Made by a program: the position numbers and the translations under genes | Shown here: piece after piece, positions 3,744 through 59,524 of the stretch | Layout of the letters: the number at the start of each line of letters is the position of its first letter | Position numbering within the stretch: the stretch's first letter is position 1 | The notes under the pieces: model-generated | Told to the model about the DNA's origin: nothing | Seen by the model: only the letters and a program-made list of their open reading frames with translations | The model's database searches: none | Assembly: GCA_020523885.1 (NCBI GenBank) | Contig: JAJAPY010000003.1 | Coordinates: 124,001-188,000, forward strand | From: Candidatus Liberimonas magnetica | GTDB lineage: Bacteria > Elusimicrobiota > Endomicrobiia > Endomicrobiales > JAFGIL01 | Direction of reading: 5' to 3' | Length of the DNA: 64,000 bases

Positions 3744-3856
3744 AGTGACGCTCCTCCGTCTGAAGCCGGAGGCTTCTTTGATAACGCGGCCTACTGCGAC
3801 ATCATTATGCATTCATCCCCCGACAGAAGTCGGGGTTTTCATGTCGCATGTAATAA
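3744..3856. repeat. Dispersed hairpin-rich repeat element, copy 1
   Basis: This 113-bp element matches 59330-59524 at both ends: an AGTGACGCTCCTCCG start, a GAAGCCGGAGGCTTCTTTG segment, GATAACGCGGCCTA, a CCCCGAC-AGAA-GTCGGGG hairpin (3818-3835) followed by TTTT, and an ATGTCGCATGTAATAA end. Inside, GCGACAT (3796-3802) pairs with ATGTCGC (3841-3847) and encloses the hairpin. It sits between the two ABC transporter genes. No ORF is encoded. Confidence 0.8.
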
Positions 3857-53902: not shown

Positions 53903-54415
53903 TTATTTAAAATATAATTCGAGCCAGTGTATGACCATCCCGATTGAAAGGAAAACCGTATAAGGCAAATATATGGAGTCTTTAGGGTTGAATTCTAAAG
54001 ACTCTTTTGTTTTTATCGATAGAAAAAGCAATATAGCAAAAAACACCTTCTTAACTACGGGTAAAAATCTTTTCTTCGTTATGAGTACAAATATAGCTGC
54101 TGTACCCCCTGCCAAGGCTCCGTACAATCCTCCTATAAGTACAAATTTCATACCTTTAAGCGCACCGACTGCTGCCATGAACTTTACGTCTCCTGCTCCG
54201 ACTCCTTTAAGAAGGTAAAAAACAAATAAAAAACTAAAACCTGCGATAAATCCATAAAATGAAGTTTCTAAACCTTTTATACCGAAAAAATAAAAATTCA
54301 ATCCGAATCCTAGTATAGATGAAGACAATACCGTATAATTAAAGATTTTTCTAAATCTTATGTCAGAATAAATCGAGAAAAATATAAAACCAAATAAAAT
54401 AAAATCAATAATCAT
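53903..54415 (-). CDS. Type IV prepilin peptidase, short TadV/CpaA type (A24)
   Basis: A 170-aa membrane protein with about five helices. The aspartic-protease motifs are YSDIRFRKI (Asp18) and GVGAGDVKFM (Asp76, GxGD). It lacks the N-terminal methylase domain of PilD, as do TadV/CpaA enzymes. It should cleave the leader of the Flp-type pilin (57019) and the TadE-like protein (58848), which lie within 5 kb on the other strand. It is preceded on its own strand by a long inverted repeat (54466-54551) and the FIST gene. Confidence 0.88.
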   Translation of the reverse strand: MIIDFILFGFIFFSIYSDIRFRKIFNYTVLSSSILGFGLNFYFFGIKGLETSFYGFIAGFSFLFVFYLLKGVGAGDVKFMAAVGALKGMKFVLIGGLYGALAGGTAAIFVLITKKRFLPVVKKVFFAILLFLSIKTKESLEFNPKDSIYLPYTVFLSIGMVIHWLELYFK

Positions 54416-54465
54416 TATTATTCCAAGTGCATCAAATTTAACTTGACAATTGTTCGGTTAAAAAA

Positions 54466-54551
54466 ATAAGTAAGATTATTTCGCAGTTTAGTTACAGACA
54501 ATGACTAATAAAAATGTCATGGCTTTCTAAAAGCGAAGCAATCTTACTTAT
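54466..54551. repeat. Long inverted repeat between prepilin peptidase and FIST genes
   Basis: ATAAGTAAGATT (54466-54477) is the exact reverse complement of AATCTTACTTAT (54540-54551); the pairing continues inward as TTCGC with GCGAA after a 2-nt mismatch. The loop is about 50 nt. Two genes on the reverse strand flank it. Confidence 0.7.
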
Positions 54552-54585
54552 ATTAATATTTCTTATACCTAATTCCAGCCTTAAC

Positions 54586-55704
54586 CTATTTAAATATAAG
54601 CATAGTCGAGGTCTGATTTATGTGCCCGACAAACTGTTCGCCGTACGTGCTAAAACCAATTGTCTGAACATCTGTGAATATTTTGCCGTAAGGTTCTGTT
54701 TGTTTTTTGTTCTCAAGTTCCAGAGTTCTTAATATGCAGTGAAAATTTATTATGCCTGAAACCTTGCCCATCTCTTTAAGTTTATTTTCAACCGCTCTCT
54801 TTGTATCAGTAACGATATCTGTAGATTCAAGCAAGGAAAGCTCCATCCCCTGTTTAATATTACAGTAAAATTTGATATTTTTGCCTACCAGCTGCTGGGG
54901 GCTGCGTACATAAGGTTCGTTATTTACCATAAGTCCTACCGGGTTAGTCATAAATTTGGTTGGAGCATCTTCAACTTTAACACCCAATGCTTCAGCATAG
55001 GCTTCGGCAGCAGGTTTATTATTGAATTCCACAACTTCTCTTGAGGACTCTATAACTTTTGTCGCGGTCAATTTATTAGTCTTCTTATCAAAGCTTTGAG
55101 TTTTGATAAAATCAAAGGCCACCTTTGATTTTATCAAGGCCAGCACCGCCGCATTTGAGTAAAGCTGCCCGTTTGAGAAAACAAAGGTCTCTTTGAACTT
55201 CAGGTCGTCTCCGGCGGAAGCGCCGATGAAATTAACATTTGTAAGGTCGCCTATTTTATCCATTAACCTTTCTTCAGCGCCGCTTAAACCATCGACAAGA
55301 ATTATACCGACAAACTTCTTAGTATCTACTGAGTTCATTTTAAAATTGTAATATTCCTCGAAATTATTAAATGCCTTTTCTACATTATTTCCTTCTTTGA
55401 TTTTTTCAACAATTTCAACCTTTACATCTTCAATAGTATCCTTGTCAAAAATCATGGCAACAACAGAGTTTTTTAAGACAAGGCCGCTTACTATTTCTCC
55501 AGAAGTAGTGCAGCCAAAAACATCCGCATCCTTAAATATATTTTTTATTCCTGAACCGACTTTGGGGAGGTCAAGGTTGGAAGTAGTAAAAAACAATACC
55601 ATCCTGGGTTTAAGTGCTTTTTCTATGTTTTTAGCTTTGTCTGCTAAGTCAGCCAACACAGCCTCTGTACCTGCTTTCGTTGAGTAAATTGTTTTAATTG
55701 ACAT
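54586..55704 (-). CDS. FIST domain sensor protein
   Basis: A 372-aa protein with a FIST N domain (roughly 30-225: FFTTSNLDLPKV, DADVFGCTTSGEIVSG, NFIGASAGDD) and a FIST_C domain (roughly 230-350, with PVGLMVNNEPYVRSP and FSTYGEQFVGHINQTST at the end). FIST proteins are predicted small-molecule sensors linked to signalling systems and occur alone or fused to kinases; this one is alone. An AAGGAG ribosome site precedes the start. It lies downstream of a 66-residue gene on the same strand, and the two likely share the promoter at 56025-56053. Confidence 0.88.
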   Translation of the reverse strand: MSIKTIYSTKAGTEAVLADLADKAKNIEKALKPRMVLFFTTSNLDLPKVGSGIKNIFKDADVFGCTTSGEIVSGLVLKNSVVAMIFDKDTIEDVKVEIVEKIKEGNNVEKAFNNFEEYYNFKMNSVDTKKFVGIILVDGLSGAEERLMDKIGDLTNVNFIGASAGDDLKFKETFVFSNGQLYSNAAVLALIKSKVAFDFIKTQSFDKKTNKLTATKVIESSREVVEFNNKPAAEAYAEALGVKVEDAPTKFMTNPVGLMVNNEPYVRSPQQLVGKNIKFYCNIKQGMELSLLESTDIVTDTKRAVENKLKEMGKVSGIINFHCILRTLELENKKQTEPYGKIFTDVQTIGFSTYGEQFVGHINQTSTMLIFK

Positions 55705-55725
55705 ATTTTATTCTCCTTTTTGGAA

Positions 55726-55926
55726 TTATAGTTGCACACCCATTTCTTCCGCAATTTTATGCAGTTTATCAACAACCTCAACATTGTCTTCTGATGTGTC
55801 CGTATACGTATCCACATTTATCCCCTTCATGAACAGCTTGGTTCTTGTGGTCACCATAATAGTTTCAATACCTCTTGCCCGCTTTTTCACAATTTCATCA
55901 ATCAACTTTTTAATTTTACCTGACAT
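55726..55926 (-). CDS. Small conserved-looking helical/beta protein of unknown function
   Basis: A 66-aa protein with no known domain: a basic N-terminal helix (MSGKIKKLIDEIVKKRARG), a beta stretch with ETIMVTTRTKLFMKGINVD and a C-terminal helix. It has a perfect AGGAGG ribosome site 4-5 nt before the ATG, and a good promoter (56025-56053) lies upstream on this strand. It is 21 bp before the FIST gene and therefore probably part of one transcript. It could be a partner of the FIST protein; nothing in the sequence proves this. Confidence 0.7.
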   Translation of the reverse strand: MSGKIKKLIDEIVKKRARGIETIMVTTRTKLFMKGINVDTYTDTSEDNVEVVDKLHKIAEEMGVQL

Positions 55927-56024
55927 AAAACCTCCTCTTTATGCTGGAATGACATCCCTTTTAATTTTCATACTTTTCATTTTACTTTTGACACTATCTA
56001 TAAGGTTTTTTAGAATCTTAATTA

Positions 56025-56053
56025 ATTATAATATTTTTGTTTTTAAAAAGCAA
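56025..56053 (-). promoter_or_regulatory. Sigma70-type promoter of the small protein-FIST operon
   Basis: On the reverse strand TTGCTT (56053-56048), a 17-bp spacer and consensus TATAAT (56030-56025). It drives 55926 and 55704 leftward. The 297-bp gap (55927-56223) also holds the forward promoter at 56161, but no repeat. Confidence 0.68.
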
Positions 56054-56160
56054 CATTTTTATATTTCTATTGTTAATTCTAATTATCCAAAATTATTGAA
56101 TAACTAAGATTTTTTTAGTAGAATATCTTCATTATTTTCAAGTACTTCCAAACTTGATTG

Positions 56161-56189
56161 TTGACTTGCACAAAAAGCCGTTATAAACT
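56161..56189 (+). promoter_or_regulatory. Sigma70-type promoter of the secretin-Flp operon
   Basis: TTGACT (56161-56166), 17-bp spacer, TAAACT (56184-56189). A GGGAGGA ribosome site at 56214-56220 precedes the ATG at 56224. It would start transcription near 56196. Confidence 0.65.
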
Positions 56190-56223
56190 AATTCATACCA
56201 CAATATACCTATAGGGAGGAAAA

Positions 56224-57003
56224 ATGCAAAATCAGAGAATGCTGAACGCATCGGTTTCGTTGCTCATGTTTGTCTTATTTTTGTTTATTTTTGCTGTCCC
56301 CTGTCTCTCATCTGAAATGATAGAAGTAGAGATCGAAATTACAGAAATAAACAATAATAAAGCGAACGAACTCGGCATTCAATGGGCAGATACTCTACAG
56401 GCAGGAGAGATATCCTGGGAGCCATCCTTTGTTGGAACCAAAAGGATACCTGCCGCTCTTCCTGAGGTTCCTTCATTAATAGATGCAGGGGATTGGAAAC
56501 GGTATACCGCATTAACTGCAAGCCTGAAAATATTGAAACAAAAGGGCGCTGCCCAGGTGCTTTCTAAGCCAAAATTGGTAACAAAATCCGGTACGACCGC
56601 AGATTTTCTTGTAGGAGGAGAAGTGCCTATTGTTGCTTCAGGGGTCGGAGGAGGTACTATTAACTGGAAGGAATTCGGTCTTAAGATGATTATATTACCA
56701 AAAATAACTCATGATAACCAGATAGATGTTTCTATGACTACGGAAGTCAGCCGCCTGGACTGGTCAAACGCAGTGGCGGGCAACCCGGCCATTACTTCAA
56801 GAAAGGCTACATCTCAATTAGTCATTAAAAACGGGCAAACGCTTGCTCTAGCCGGAATGATAGAAACAAAAAAAGAGAAACAAAAAACCGGTATCCCTCT
56901 TTTGATGGATATCCCTATATTGGGCTACCTTTTCAGCCGGCAAATAGATGTTGACACCAAAACGAATGTTCTAATTTTTGTTACCCCAAAAATAATTGAA
57001 TAG
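56224..57003 (+). CDS. Secretin-domain-only protein (RcpA/CpaC-type C-terminal domain)
   Basis: A 259-aa protein. After a signal peptide (about 1-31) the secretin domain starts directly: IEVEIEITEINNNKANELGIQW, then QVLSKPKLVTKSG, ADFLVGGEVPI, TLALAGMIE, GIPLLMDIPILGYLF and TNVLIFVTPKII, the full C-terminal secretin signature. The N0, N1 and BON domains of usual secretins are missing, and the length is only half that of CpaC. It would form a minimal outer-membrane channel for the Tad/Flp-type system. It is followed by the Flp pilin gene after 15 bp. Confidence 0.87.
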   Translation: MQNQRMLNASVSLLMFVLFLFIFAVPCLSSEMIEVEIEITEINNNKANELGIQWADTLQAGEISWEPSFVGTKRIPAALPEVPSLIDAGDWKRYTALTASLKILKQKGAAQVLSKPKLVTKSGTTADFLVGGEVPIVASGVGGGTINWKEFGLKMIILPKITHDNQIDVSMTTEVSRLDWSNAVAGNPAITSRKATSQLVIKNGQTLALAGMIETKKEKQKTGIPLLMDIPILGYLFSRQIDVDTKTNVLIFVTPKIIE

Positions 57004-57018
57004 CAGCAGAGAGAAACG

Positions 57019-57213
57019 GTGTATATTATGATTAAATTTGTATCCAGATTTTACAATGATGAGAACGCTCAGGCGATGGTTGAATATGTATTGATATTAT
57101 CTATTCTCACGCTTGCTTCCTACGGGGTTGTTAAGTTGTTCCTTGCAGCCCTTGCTTCAAAATTCAATAAAATTAAATTTTTAAGGAGCGGGCCGGCAGG
57201 AGTTATGCCTTGA
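57019..57213 (+). CDS. Flp-type pilin
   Basis: A 64-aa protein: a short charged leader, NDENAQAMVEYVLILSIL with the Flp/TadE processing region (Glu next to the hydrophobic helix, preceded by a small residue), then one membrane helix. Flp pilins are processed by a TadV-type peptidase, here encoded at 53903. The GTG at 57019 has an AGAGAG site; ATG 57028 is an alternative start. The C-terminal tail KIKFLRSGPAGVMP is atypical. Its stop overlaps the next start codon (TTGA), so translation is coupled. Confidence 0.85.
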   Translation: MYIMIKFVSRFYNDENAQAMVEYVLILSILTLASYGVVKLFLAALASKFNKIKFLRSGPAGVMP

Positions 57214-58355
57214 CCCTGAAACTAAAATTATATTTTTTTACTACCGCTCTTTTACTGACTTTTATTATGGATTTTACCTGTTTTTCAAAAGAATGGGAAA
57301 CCGTATCAGAAGTAAATATATCCAAAGCTCTTGAAGAACAAATAGCCAGATATCAGAAGAAATTCGATGACATAGTTTCAGATGCCAAAAATGAAATATC
57401 CGGTTTTGAAGACGAATTAACAAACCAGGCAACTCACCTAAATGACATTAAAAATGAATATGAAAAAAACATTTCTGAGTACCAGGCCAAAATAGACGAT
57501 ATGCAGGCAGGGATTTATGCTACGGTGGATTCTTACAAAAAAATGGCAGACAGCTTCGCAAACGATGCTGAGGGCAGGATTGAAACAGCCAAAGATGATT
57601 TAAACAATGTAAAAAATAATCTGGAAGATTCAATTGTTGATTATAAAAACAAAGCTGAAGCAAAAATAAACACTGAAGTGGAAAAATACAAAGAAAAAAT
57701 ATATGATACCCAAAAAAGTATAGAAGCTGAAGTAAACCATTACCAGGCTTTAATTCAAAACACTGAAGCCGGACTAAAAGAGACAGTAGATAATTATCAA
57801 ACCAGGATAAATGAAATTCAAGCATCTTTGAACGATTCCATTAAACAATCTGAGTCTCAAATAGAGAGTGTCAGGGAAAATACGGAAAAGACCATAGCCG
57901 GGTTGAACTATAAAATCAGCGAGGCCAGAAACAGGCTTGAAAATTGTACAGATACCGCAATGGTTAACAACATAAATAAAGAAGTTGAAGATTATAAAAG
58001 TGAAATAGAAGAAACCGTTGCTTCGGGAAATGAAGATATACAAAAAATCCAGGACGAAACACAAAATAAACTAAGTGCCTGTGACACAGAGATAAAAATA
58101 TACCAGGGCAAAATCCGGGAAGCTAATCAAACAGCTGAAATTAGTATACAAGAATATAATGATAAAATCGTAAAATCAAAGGACAGTATTAAGGATGAGG
58201 TAGCTGAAAACCAGGCTAAAATAGACGTGTACAATGAAGGCATAAAAAATACTGCCCAAAACTCCTATCAAAACATAGAAGAAAACACGGGTAACGCTTT
58301 ATCTTTGGCAGATGCACAAATAGCAGGTGTCGTTAACAGTTACGGCCTTAAATAA
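57210..58355 (+). CDS. Secreted all-helical protein made of 18-residue repeats
   Basis: A 381-aa protein with a signal peptide (about 1-22). The body is highly helical, with 18-residue repeats in phase: residues 90-107, 108-125, 126-143, 159-176, 177-194, 195-212, 213-230, then 297-314, 315-332 and 333-350. Consensus is roughly xYQxKIxDxQxxIxxxVx (Tyr at position 2, hydrophobics at 6, 13 and 17). An 18-residue period is five helical turns, giving an amphipathic rod. Cys at 246 and 291. TTG start with AGGAG (57198-57202) 7 nt upstream and overlap with the pilin stop. I know no named family; a structural or tip/sheath role is a guess. Confidence 0.8.
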   Translation: MTLKLKLYFFTTALLLTFIMDFTCFSKEWETVSEVNISKALEEQIARYQKKFDDIVSDAKNEISGFEDELTNQATHLNDIKNEYEKNISEYQAKIDDMQAGIYATVDSYKKMADSFANDAEGRIETAKDDLNNVKNNLEDSIVDYKNKAEAKINTEVEKYKEKIYDTQKSIEAEVNHYQALIQNTEAGLKETVDNYQTRINEIQASLNDSIKQSESQIESVRENTEKTIAGLNYKISEARNRLENCTDTAMVNNINKEVEDYKSEIEETVASGNEDIQKIQDETQNKLSACDTEIKIYQGKIREANQTAEISIQEYNDKIVKSKDSIKDEVAENQAKIDVYNEGIKNTAQNSYQNIEENTGNALSLADAQIAGVVNSYGLK

Positions 58356-58356
58356 C

Positions 58357-58851
58357 ATGCTAAAACAATTCATAGCAACATCATTTTTGTTTGTTTTTCT
58401 TTTTAGTTTTCTTTCCTGCAAGAACTTAAAACAATCATCTTCTAAAGATAAAACTGAAAGAAGTAAGGAGTCTTTCCAGATAACTGACCTGAAAATTGGC
58501 TCCGGAAACAATAAAATAGAGATAGAGAAAACCGAGTTTAAAATCGGCGAAATAATCCGGTTAAATTTCAGTGCAAAAAACCTTATCGCTGTAAAAGAGA
58601 AAAATGTAAAATATTACTGGGTTAGAGAAGACCTTACCGTCAGGGATTCAAGGAATGCCATAGTGCTGTTAAAAGCAGGTATCATAGACCAGAAAGACCT
58701 TATCAGCAGGAAACCCCTGGAATTTGTAAATGAAATTTCTTTGAAAAACATTGAAGGCTTAAAGACGGGCAACTACACTATTGCCCTTCTTGTGACTGAT
58801 ATGATCGGATTTAAAACAGATACTCAGGCATTAGAGATAAAGCTAAAATGA
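58357..58851 (+). CDS. Predicted lipoprotein with Ig-like beta domain
   Basis: A 164-aa protein with a lipoprotein signal (MLKQFIATSFLFVFLFSF before LSC; Cys at the end of a LSC lipobox). After a charged linker, residues about 40-164 form one beta-sandwich-like domain with SGNNKIEIEKTEFKIGEII and LKTGNYTIALLVTD strands. I chose ATG 58357 over the upstream GTG at 58327 because it starts the signal peptide exactly. It lies between the repeat protein and the TadE-like gene, so it may be a Tad-system accessory lipoprotein. The stop overlaps the next ATG by 4 bp. Confidence 0.75.
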   Translation: MLKQFIATSFLFVFLFSFLSCKNLKQSSSKDKTERSKESFQITDLKIGSGNNKIEIEKTEFKIGEIIRLNFSAKNLIAVKEKNVKYYWVREDLTVRDSRNAIVLLKAGIIDQKDLISRKPLEFVNEISLKNIEGLKTGNYTIALLVTDMIGFKTDTQALEIKLK

Positions 58852-59330
58852 ATAAATTTAAGAATACTAAGGGGCAGGCTCTAATCGAAACGCTGCTATG
58901 CACCGTATTCCTTATTATTATTTGTTTTGCGACTATCCAGCTATGTATTGTCGTTATCCATGACTTGATATCAAATGAAGCTGCATTTTCAATTGCACGT
59001 GCTGCTTCTGTGACAAAAGATGAAAACACATTGGACAATAGAGTAAAAACAGCTGCTGCAATCCTGTTATTGCCTCATTTTAACCTAAATAGCTTTGTCC
59101 CTGTAAAAGCCCGGACCGAAAGTACGGATATAGCAGGAAGAAAGGTATATAATGTAACTCTGGAATACTTTATCAACACAATGTTTGCTTATTTTATTGA
59201 TCCTCTGGCTAAAGACACATATTCACTTGGAAGTTCAAGATTTCTCAAACGTTTTGCACGGGCAAGAATAGTGAAATCCCCTGATGAAGAGTTTTACAAC
59301 AAAGCTTACCCCCAGGCCAATGAATTTTAG
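58848..59330 (+). CDS. TadE/TadG-like pseudopilin
   Basis: A 160-aa protein: GQALIETLLCTVFLIIICF is the TadE-type leader/helix (GQAxxE) for prepilin processing. The soluble part has IARAASVTKDENTLDNRVK, typical of TadE-like proteins, and a C-terminal charged tail. The Ala-Leu-Ile-Glu at the helix start gives the conserved Glu+5 equivalent. It overlaps the lipoprotein gene by 4 bp. With the pilin, secretin and peptidase it completes a minimal Tad-like set lacking visible TadA/B/C genes. A dispersed repeat starts at the stop codon. Confidence 0.82.
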   Translation: MNKFKNTKGQALIETLLCTVFLIIICFATIQLCIVVIHDLISNEAAFSIARAASVTKDENTLDNRVKTAAAILLLPHFNLNSFVPVKARTESTDIAGRKVYNVTLEYFINTMFAYFIDPLAKDTYSLGSSRFLKRFARARIVKSPDEEFYNKAYPQANEF

Positions 59331-59524
59331 TGATGCTCCTCCGGTTGAAGCCGGAAGCTTCTTTAATAACGCAGCCTAATGTGACTTCATTAATTTGATT
59401 TGACGGAATCCCTTTAGGGACTACATCATTTTGCATTGCCTACTCCGCCGTAGTAGCCTTTATGGCTACGAAGGCCGGGCATCCTCCGACAGAAGTCGGA
59501 GGTTTTCATGTCGCATGTAATAAC
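59330..59524. repeat. Dispersed hairpin-rich repeat element, copy 2
   Basis: The ends match 3744-3856: AGTGATGCTCCTCCGG...GAAGCCGG.AGCTTCTTT..ATAACGC.GCCTA at the left and CATCCTCCGACAGAAGTC, GGAGGTTTTCATGTCGC at the right. The middle carries about 80 bp more, including TCCC-TTTA-GGGA and GTAGCC-TTTAT-GGCTAC hairpins. The last hairpin CCTCCGAC-AGAA-GTCGGAGG (59483-59502) is followed by TTTT. It begins at the TadE-like stop. Confidence 0.82.

What the first reader, a model, noticed from the sequence alone, without database searches (positions are those of the whole stretch)
53903..59330. A minimal Tad/Flp-like locus without assembly ATPase or TadB/C, with its own accessory proteins
Secretin-domain-only protein, Flp pilin, secreted 18-residue-repeat protein, lipoprotein, TadE-like pseudopilin and, divergently, a prepilin peptidase, FIST protein and a 66-aa protein lie in 5.4 kb. 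The core motors are missing here. This could be a distinct surface-fibre or secretion system using motors encoded elsewhere, or a reduced derivative. I do not recognise it as a described system.
Basis: partly seen in the sequence, partly recalled or inferred. Interest (0 to 1): 0.72.

Follow-up and report, generated by a model that had tools for sequence, protein, structure and literature searches.

The report
Half of a split Tad pilus operon
These genes are the outer-membrane half of an ordinary-looking bacterial gripping-fibre (Tad pilus) machine whose motor half lies on another contig; the machine is known, but its split genes and its stripped-down exit pore are an unusual variant found across one bacterial phylum.

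Summary
It is one half of a Tad (type IVc) pilus operon broken in two. The motor half is on contig C1 of the same genome: TadG, TadE, a canonical Flp pilin, CpaB, TadZ-TadA fusion, TadB and TadC, with no secretin and no prepilin peptidase. The sister genus has both halves in one operon at the window's own site. A dispersed ~200-bp repeat begins at the stop codon where this operon ends. The organism is an Endomicrobiales bacterium (Elusimicrobiota). Elsewhere in the phylum the orthologous secretin lies between cpaB and tadZA. Two features are unusual. Tad systems are described as almost always single-locus, yet most Endomicrobiales with both halves have them apart, with at least three break points. 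The Tad secretin is only a signal peptide plus the core in every orthologue examined, and CpaB lacks the C-terminal hairpin that docks on the missing N-domain in Pseudomonas. The only published Tad I found with both a split locus and a short secretin is the Myxococcus Kil apparatus. FIST and the 66-aa gene are passengers. New variant of a known kind.

The parts
53903..54415 (-). Short A24 prepilin peptidase (TadV/CpaA type, 170 aa), probable leader peptidase for this system
   Evidence: Pfam Peptidase_A24 E 3.9e-13. One of only two A24 peptidases in the genome; the other lies on C2 near type IV pilus genes. Same place beside the secretin in the sister genus.
56224..57003 (+). Tad secretin (RcpA/CpaC orthologue) reduced to signal peptide plus secretin core; no N-domain, no C-terminal S-domain
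   Evidence: Pfam Secretin over 104-259; orthologues lie between cpaB and tadZA elsewhere in the phylum; best PDB sequence matches 8jvb and 8odn RcpA; AF2 model is core only.
57019..57213 (+). Flp-like pilin 1 (minor or secretin-linked; possible ATG start at 57028)
   Evidence: Flp_Fap E 0.022, sub-threshold; NDENAQAMVEY motif and a similar RSGxxGxxP end in relatives of families f1, f4 and f5, beside the secretin.
57210..58355 (+). Rep18: secreted protein of 18-residue helical repeats, length-variable (381 to 1284 aa); accessory
   Evidence: Period 18; followed by Lipo and TadE1 in four families of the order.
58327..58851 (+). Predicted lipoprotein (ATG alternative at 58360), accessory
   Evidence: Homologues in only three of the other related genomes, always between Rep18 and TadE1.
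58848..59330 (+). TadE-like minor pilin 1
   Evidence: TadE E 3.2e-4, just under cut-off; overlaps tadG in the intact operon of the sister genus.
59326..59523 (+). Dispersed ~200-bp hairpin-rich repeat at the operon break point; overlaps the tadE stop
   Evidence: 31 matches in the genome including this one, near-full copies at 99% and 90%; boundary 59326-59523.
54586..55704 (-). FIST protein, NosP-like; passenger, not part of the Tad unit
   Evidence: FIST_N/FIST_C; NosP below cut-off; absent at this site in relatives, PPIC protein there in the sister genus.
55726..55926 (-). 66-aa orphan ORF; passenger
   Evidence: No match in 59 related genomes.

Best explanation
The window holds the outer-membrane and minor-pilin half (prepilin peptidase, secretin, Flp-like pilin, TadE, plus accessory Rep18 and lipoprotein) of one Tad/type IVc pilus system; the other half (TadG, TadE2, major Flp pilin, TPR protein, CpaB, TadZ-TadA fusion ATPase, TadB, TadC) is on contig C1:296858-306213. 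Working model: the peptidase trims Flp and TadE prepilins; TadZA with TadB/TadC polymerises Flp from the inner membrane; CpaB forms the periplasmic ring; the pilus leaves through the core-only secretin. Shown by sequence: the components, their complementarity, the single operon in the sister genus, cpaB-secretin-tadZA adjacency in most other genomes of the phylum, and absence of the secretin N-domain and of the CpaB hairpin. Inferred: that the products assemble into one working machine, that CpaB meets the secretin core directly or through another protein, that the dispersed repeat caused the break, and that the pilus serves adhesion or contact.
For: C1 locus complementary and lacking secretin and peptidase. 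Of four secretins in the genome, C10's lies in a PilB-PilT-PilC-PilM cluster, while C2's and C6's are long and lie on contigs that carry their own platform and ATPase genes, leaving the window's as the Tad one. Sister genus: single operon at the same speA-dksA-peptidase site. Other classes: CpaB-Secretin-TadZA, start-to-start under 4 kb in 73 of 81 genomes. Co-occurrence in 60 relatives: both 42, neither 13, one only 5; Fisher p 1e-8. Both halves decayed in G012. Repeat at the break. Structure: secretin core and RcpC matches.
Against: No expression or functional data. G000 is a draft assembly, so a misjoin cannot be excluded for this genome, although the split is real in a one-contig relative (G014, 184 kb apart). 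The sister contig ends after TadZA, so its tadB/tadC are unseen. Co-occurrence is not corrected for relatedness. Flp1, TadE1 and the TadZ part are weak against Pfam. In drafts, genes on different contigs could in part reflect fragmentation.
Confidence: 0.87

Rival explanations
1. Distinct motor-less surface-fibre or secretion system that borrows motors from the type IV pilus or type II secretion systems.
For: The genome also encodes type IV pilus-type clusters with PilB/PilT/PilC; Rep18 and Lipo are unusual accessories.
Against: Dedicated TadZA/TadB/TadC present and co-distributed; the single operon in the sister genus links the same genes.
Confidence: 0.04
2. Degenerating remnant: the split marks loss of function, as in the pseudogenised copies of reduced Endomicrobium-type genomes.
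For: G012 has both loci as pseudogenes and ten reduced genomes lack both.
Against: All window and C1 genes are full-length and open; split loci are open in most of the order.
Confidence: 0.05
3. Assembly chimera: in reality one operon in this organism too. (This would change the split in this genome, not the Tad identity.)
For: A dispersed repeat lies exactly at the break, the classic place for misjoins; the sister genus is joined.
Against: Splits occur in relatives at other break points, including one in a single-contig genome; the C1 locus keeps the HK-DUF192 neighbours seen in other split genomes.
Confidence: 0.1

Closest known systems
Tad / type IVc pilus (Caulobacter Cpa, Pseudomonas Rcp/Tad; PMC6668835, PMC12307814, PMC13170226)
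   Same: Flp, TadE/TadG-like minor pilins, CpaB/RcpC, TadA, TadB, TadC, secretin and A24 peptidase all present; cpaB-secretin-tadA-tadB-tadC order in loci of other classes of the phylum.
   Different: Genes split over two loci; secretin without N-domain or S-domain; CpaB without the C-terminal hairpin; TadZ-like region fused to TadA; two Flp-like pilins.
Myxococcus xanthus Kil apparatus (PMC8460266)
   Same: Tad-like genes in two complementary clusters, which its authors call a unique situation; secretin 'uniquely short' and lacking N0.
   Different: Kil ATPase carries an FHA domain and Kil lacks TadG; here no FHA was found, a TadG-like protein is present, and the ATPase has a TadZ-like part. 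No predation evidence here.
Tad-like regions of Endomicrobium agilae TA21/TA26, E. proavitum, Elusimicrobium minutum (PMC8809381)
   Same: Same phylum and system; called 'near-complete' there; pseudogenes in Rs-D17.

Membership tests
Tad / type IVc pilus | TadA-family assembly ATPase | tested here: met
   C1 709-aa protein: T2SSE E 5.1e-64; TadA family TIGR03819 E 1.5e-96 though below its cut-off.
Tad / type IVc pilus | Paired short platform proteins TadB and TadC | tested here: met
   Two T2SSF proteins of 293 and 297 aa side by side on C1.
Tad / type IVc pilus | TadZ (ParA/MinD-like) | tested here: inconclusive
   N-terminal part of TadZA: AAA_31 E 0.0045, below cut-off.
Tad / type IVc pilus | Flp pilin and TadE/TadG-like minor pilins | tested here: met
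   Canonical Flp2 on C1; TadE2 and TadG over cut-off; window Flp1 and TadE1 sub-threshold.
Tad / type IVc pilus | CpaB/RcpC alignment protein | tested here: met
   RcpC Pfam E 2.3e-17; model of the sister-genus protein matches 9gzr RcpC E 1.5e-12.
Tad / type IVc pilus | RcpC C-terminal beta-hairpin that docks on the secretin | tested here: not met
   CpaB ends after D2 in the other classes; helical or disordered tail in Endomicrobiia.
Tad / type IVc pilus | Secretin with VirB9-like N-domain | tested here: not met
   Core only; 51 named-record orthologues of 232-270 aa.
Tad / type IVc pilus | Dedicated prepilin peptidase | tested here: met
   A24 protein beside the secretin in G000 and G001.
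Tad / type IVc pilus | Single-locus organisation | tested here: not met
   C3 and C1 loci; joined in only 3 of 42 order genomes with both.
Tad / type IVc pilus | TadD pilotin (TPR lipoprotein) | tested here: inconclusive
   TPR protein on C1 with a membrane anchor but no obvious lipobox; the window lipoprotein has no TPR match.
Tad / type IVc pilus | Makes a pilus | not testable with these tools
   Needs microscopy.
Kil apparatus | Two complementary clusters and short secretin lacking N0 | tested here: met
   published description read.
Kil apparatus | FHA-fused ATPase, no TadG | tested here: not met
   No FHA match in TadZA; TadG-like protein present.

The most novel reading that the evidence does not exclude
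Elusimicrobiota Tad machines span the envelope without the published secretin N-domain/RcpC-hairpin dock: both halves of that interface are missing together across the phylum, so the inner and outer parts must couple another way, perhaps only on contact as suggested for Kil. Separate loci could then allow the two halves to be expressed apart, with the variable-length Rep18 rods as surface or periplasmic linkers in some lineages.
Probability: 0.25. Interest if true: 0.65.

Novelty: new variant of a known kind. Interest (0 to 1): 0.47.

Why it matters
Tad loci are described as almost exclusively single-locus, and a split locus plus an N0-less secretin was called unique to Myxococcus Kil. Both occur here in an unrelated phylum, the short secretin in all its sampled classes. 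That tests the published view that the secretin N-domain and RcpC hairpin are what join the parts in the two membranes, and gives genomes in which intact and split operons can be compared in close relatives.

Tried and rejected
1) That the 426-aa secretin on C10 is the real Tad secretin: rejected, it sits in a PilB-PilT-PilC-PilM cluster. 2) That CpaB and secretin are fused in genus g50 (long open frames): rejected, they are separate genes and the long frames are out-of-frame openness. 3) FIST and the 66-aa ORF as parts: rejected. 4) RNA element in the region: no Rfam match. 6) A copy of the break-point repeat upstream of tadG on C1: none found. 7) Paper searches for minimal secretins and for Tad secretins in Elusimicrobiota gave no report of the core-only form in that phylum; subscription papers are not covered.

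Full report
Observation. The secretin match covers residues 104-259 of a 259-aa protein; across 17 and then 43 orthologues the signal peptide is followed directly by the start of the secretin core. An AlphaFold model (mean pLDDT 79) shows one signal helix and the core strands, with no N-domain, and matches secretins in the PDB. Rep18 has a true 18-residue period.

The missing motors. The window is part of contig C3 of a 3.39-Mb, 97.8% complete genome. On contig C1 (locus L016) lie tadG-like, tadE, a canonical 53-aa Flp pilin (MLKRFWNDESAQGMVEYILIVALVA..., missed by the 55-aa ORF cut-off), a TPR protein, cpaB, a radical-SAM-like gene, a 709-aa TadZ-TadA fusion, tadB and tadC. No secretin or A24 peptidase is there: the genome's four secretins are on C2, C6, C10 and C3 and its two A24 peptidases on C2 and C3. 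The C10 secretin belongs to a type IV pilus-type cluster.

One operon, broken. In the sister genus (G001, L087/L127, an Endomicrobiales MAG) the order is speA-dksA-(trehalose phosphatase)-peptidase(-)-PPIC-secretin-(response regulator/GGDEF)-Flp1-TadE1-TadG-TadE2-Flp2-CpaB-CsgG-like-TadZA, then the contig ends. In the window genome the same site runs speA-dksA-peptidase-FIST-66aa-secretin-Flp1-Rep18-Lipo-TadE1 and stops; TadG onwards is on C1. A dispersed repeat (59326-59523; 31 matches in the genome including this one) begins at the stop codon of TadE1. Whether it caused the break is inference. Other break points occur in the order: Flp2|CpaB in G005, TadG|TadE2 in family f6; G001, G004 and G034 are joined. 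Of 42 order genomes with both genes, 3 are joined, 3 have them on one contig 68-184 kb apart (in G014 that contig is the whole assembly), and 36 on different contigs. The 42 counts include the window genome.

Rest of the phylum. Named records place the organism in Endomicrobiales, Elusimicrobiota. In other classes the core-only secretin lies between cpaB and tadZA, with tadB-tadC next where the stretch read reaches that far; 73 of 81 listed genomes have secretin and tadZA starts within 4 kb. This supports orthology with the RcpA/CpaC secretin. Secretin and TadZA co-occur in the 60 nearest genomes (42 both, 13 neither, 5 one only; Fisher p 1e-8, not corrected for kinship). G012 has both as pseudogenes.

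Docking interface. In Pseudomonas, RcpC docks on the RcpA N-domain; its C-terminal hairpin is modelled at that interface and is needed for function (PMC12307814). CpaC has an N3 and a VirB9-like domain (PMC13170226). Here the secretin N-domain is absent, and CpaB either ends after D2 or has a disordered or helical tail; its fold still matches RcpC. How the ring meets the pore is therefore unknown; this is the open mechanistic point.

Known and new. Tad systems in Elusimicrobia are known (PMC6668835; PMC8809381). Tad is 'almost exclusively' single-locus, and the Kil paper calls both the split and the short N0-less secretin unique (PMC8460266). Both are found here in an unrelated phylum. By composition the system is Tad, not Kil.

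Limits. No functional data; draft assemblies; no survey of other phyla; the TadZ identity of the fusion's N-terminus is weak.

Noticed in passing
L088:10504-11562, L089:4518-5567, L190:14394-15611, L192:8455-9522: A second TadA-like ATPase of about 350-405 aa without the TadZ-like part lies directly downstream of the Tad secretin in several Elusimicrobiota genomes; Tad is usually said to have one ATPase, so this could be a dedicated retraction motor. No such copy was found in the window genome.
   Followed up: partly
window 57210-58355; L088:11738-15592; L208:1-1767; L209:1-1488: Rep18 varies from 381 to 1284 aa with period 18 (7+11), fitting a long straight helical rod; always followed by the lipoprotein and TadE1.
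   Followed up: partly
window 59326-59523 and 3746-3856: Dispersed hairpin-rich repeat of about 200 bp, 31 full or partial matches genome-wide; a second partial copy lies at window 3746-3856.
   Followed up: partly
window 54586-55926: FIST protein close to the nitric-oxide sensor NosP family (below cut-off) beside an orphan 66-aa ORF with no relative in 59 related genomes.
   Followed up: partly
L016:7242-8702 and L087:14424-15296: Different genes sit between cpaB and tadZA: a radical-SAM-like protein (judged from its sequence only) in the window genome, a CsgG-like protein in the sister genus.
   Followed up: no
L094:6518-9001, L090:2682-5395, L016:14445-18252: In G002 and much of family f6 the secretin follows lpd-gcvT-like genes; in the window genome trpB-lpd-gcvT-like genes lie downstream of the C1 tad genes, a possible trace of a shared ancestral neighbourhood.
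   Followed up: partly
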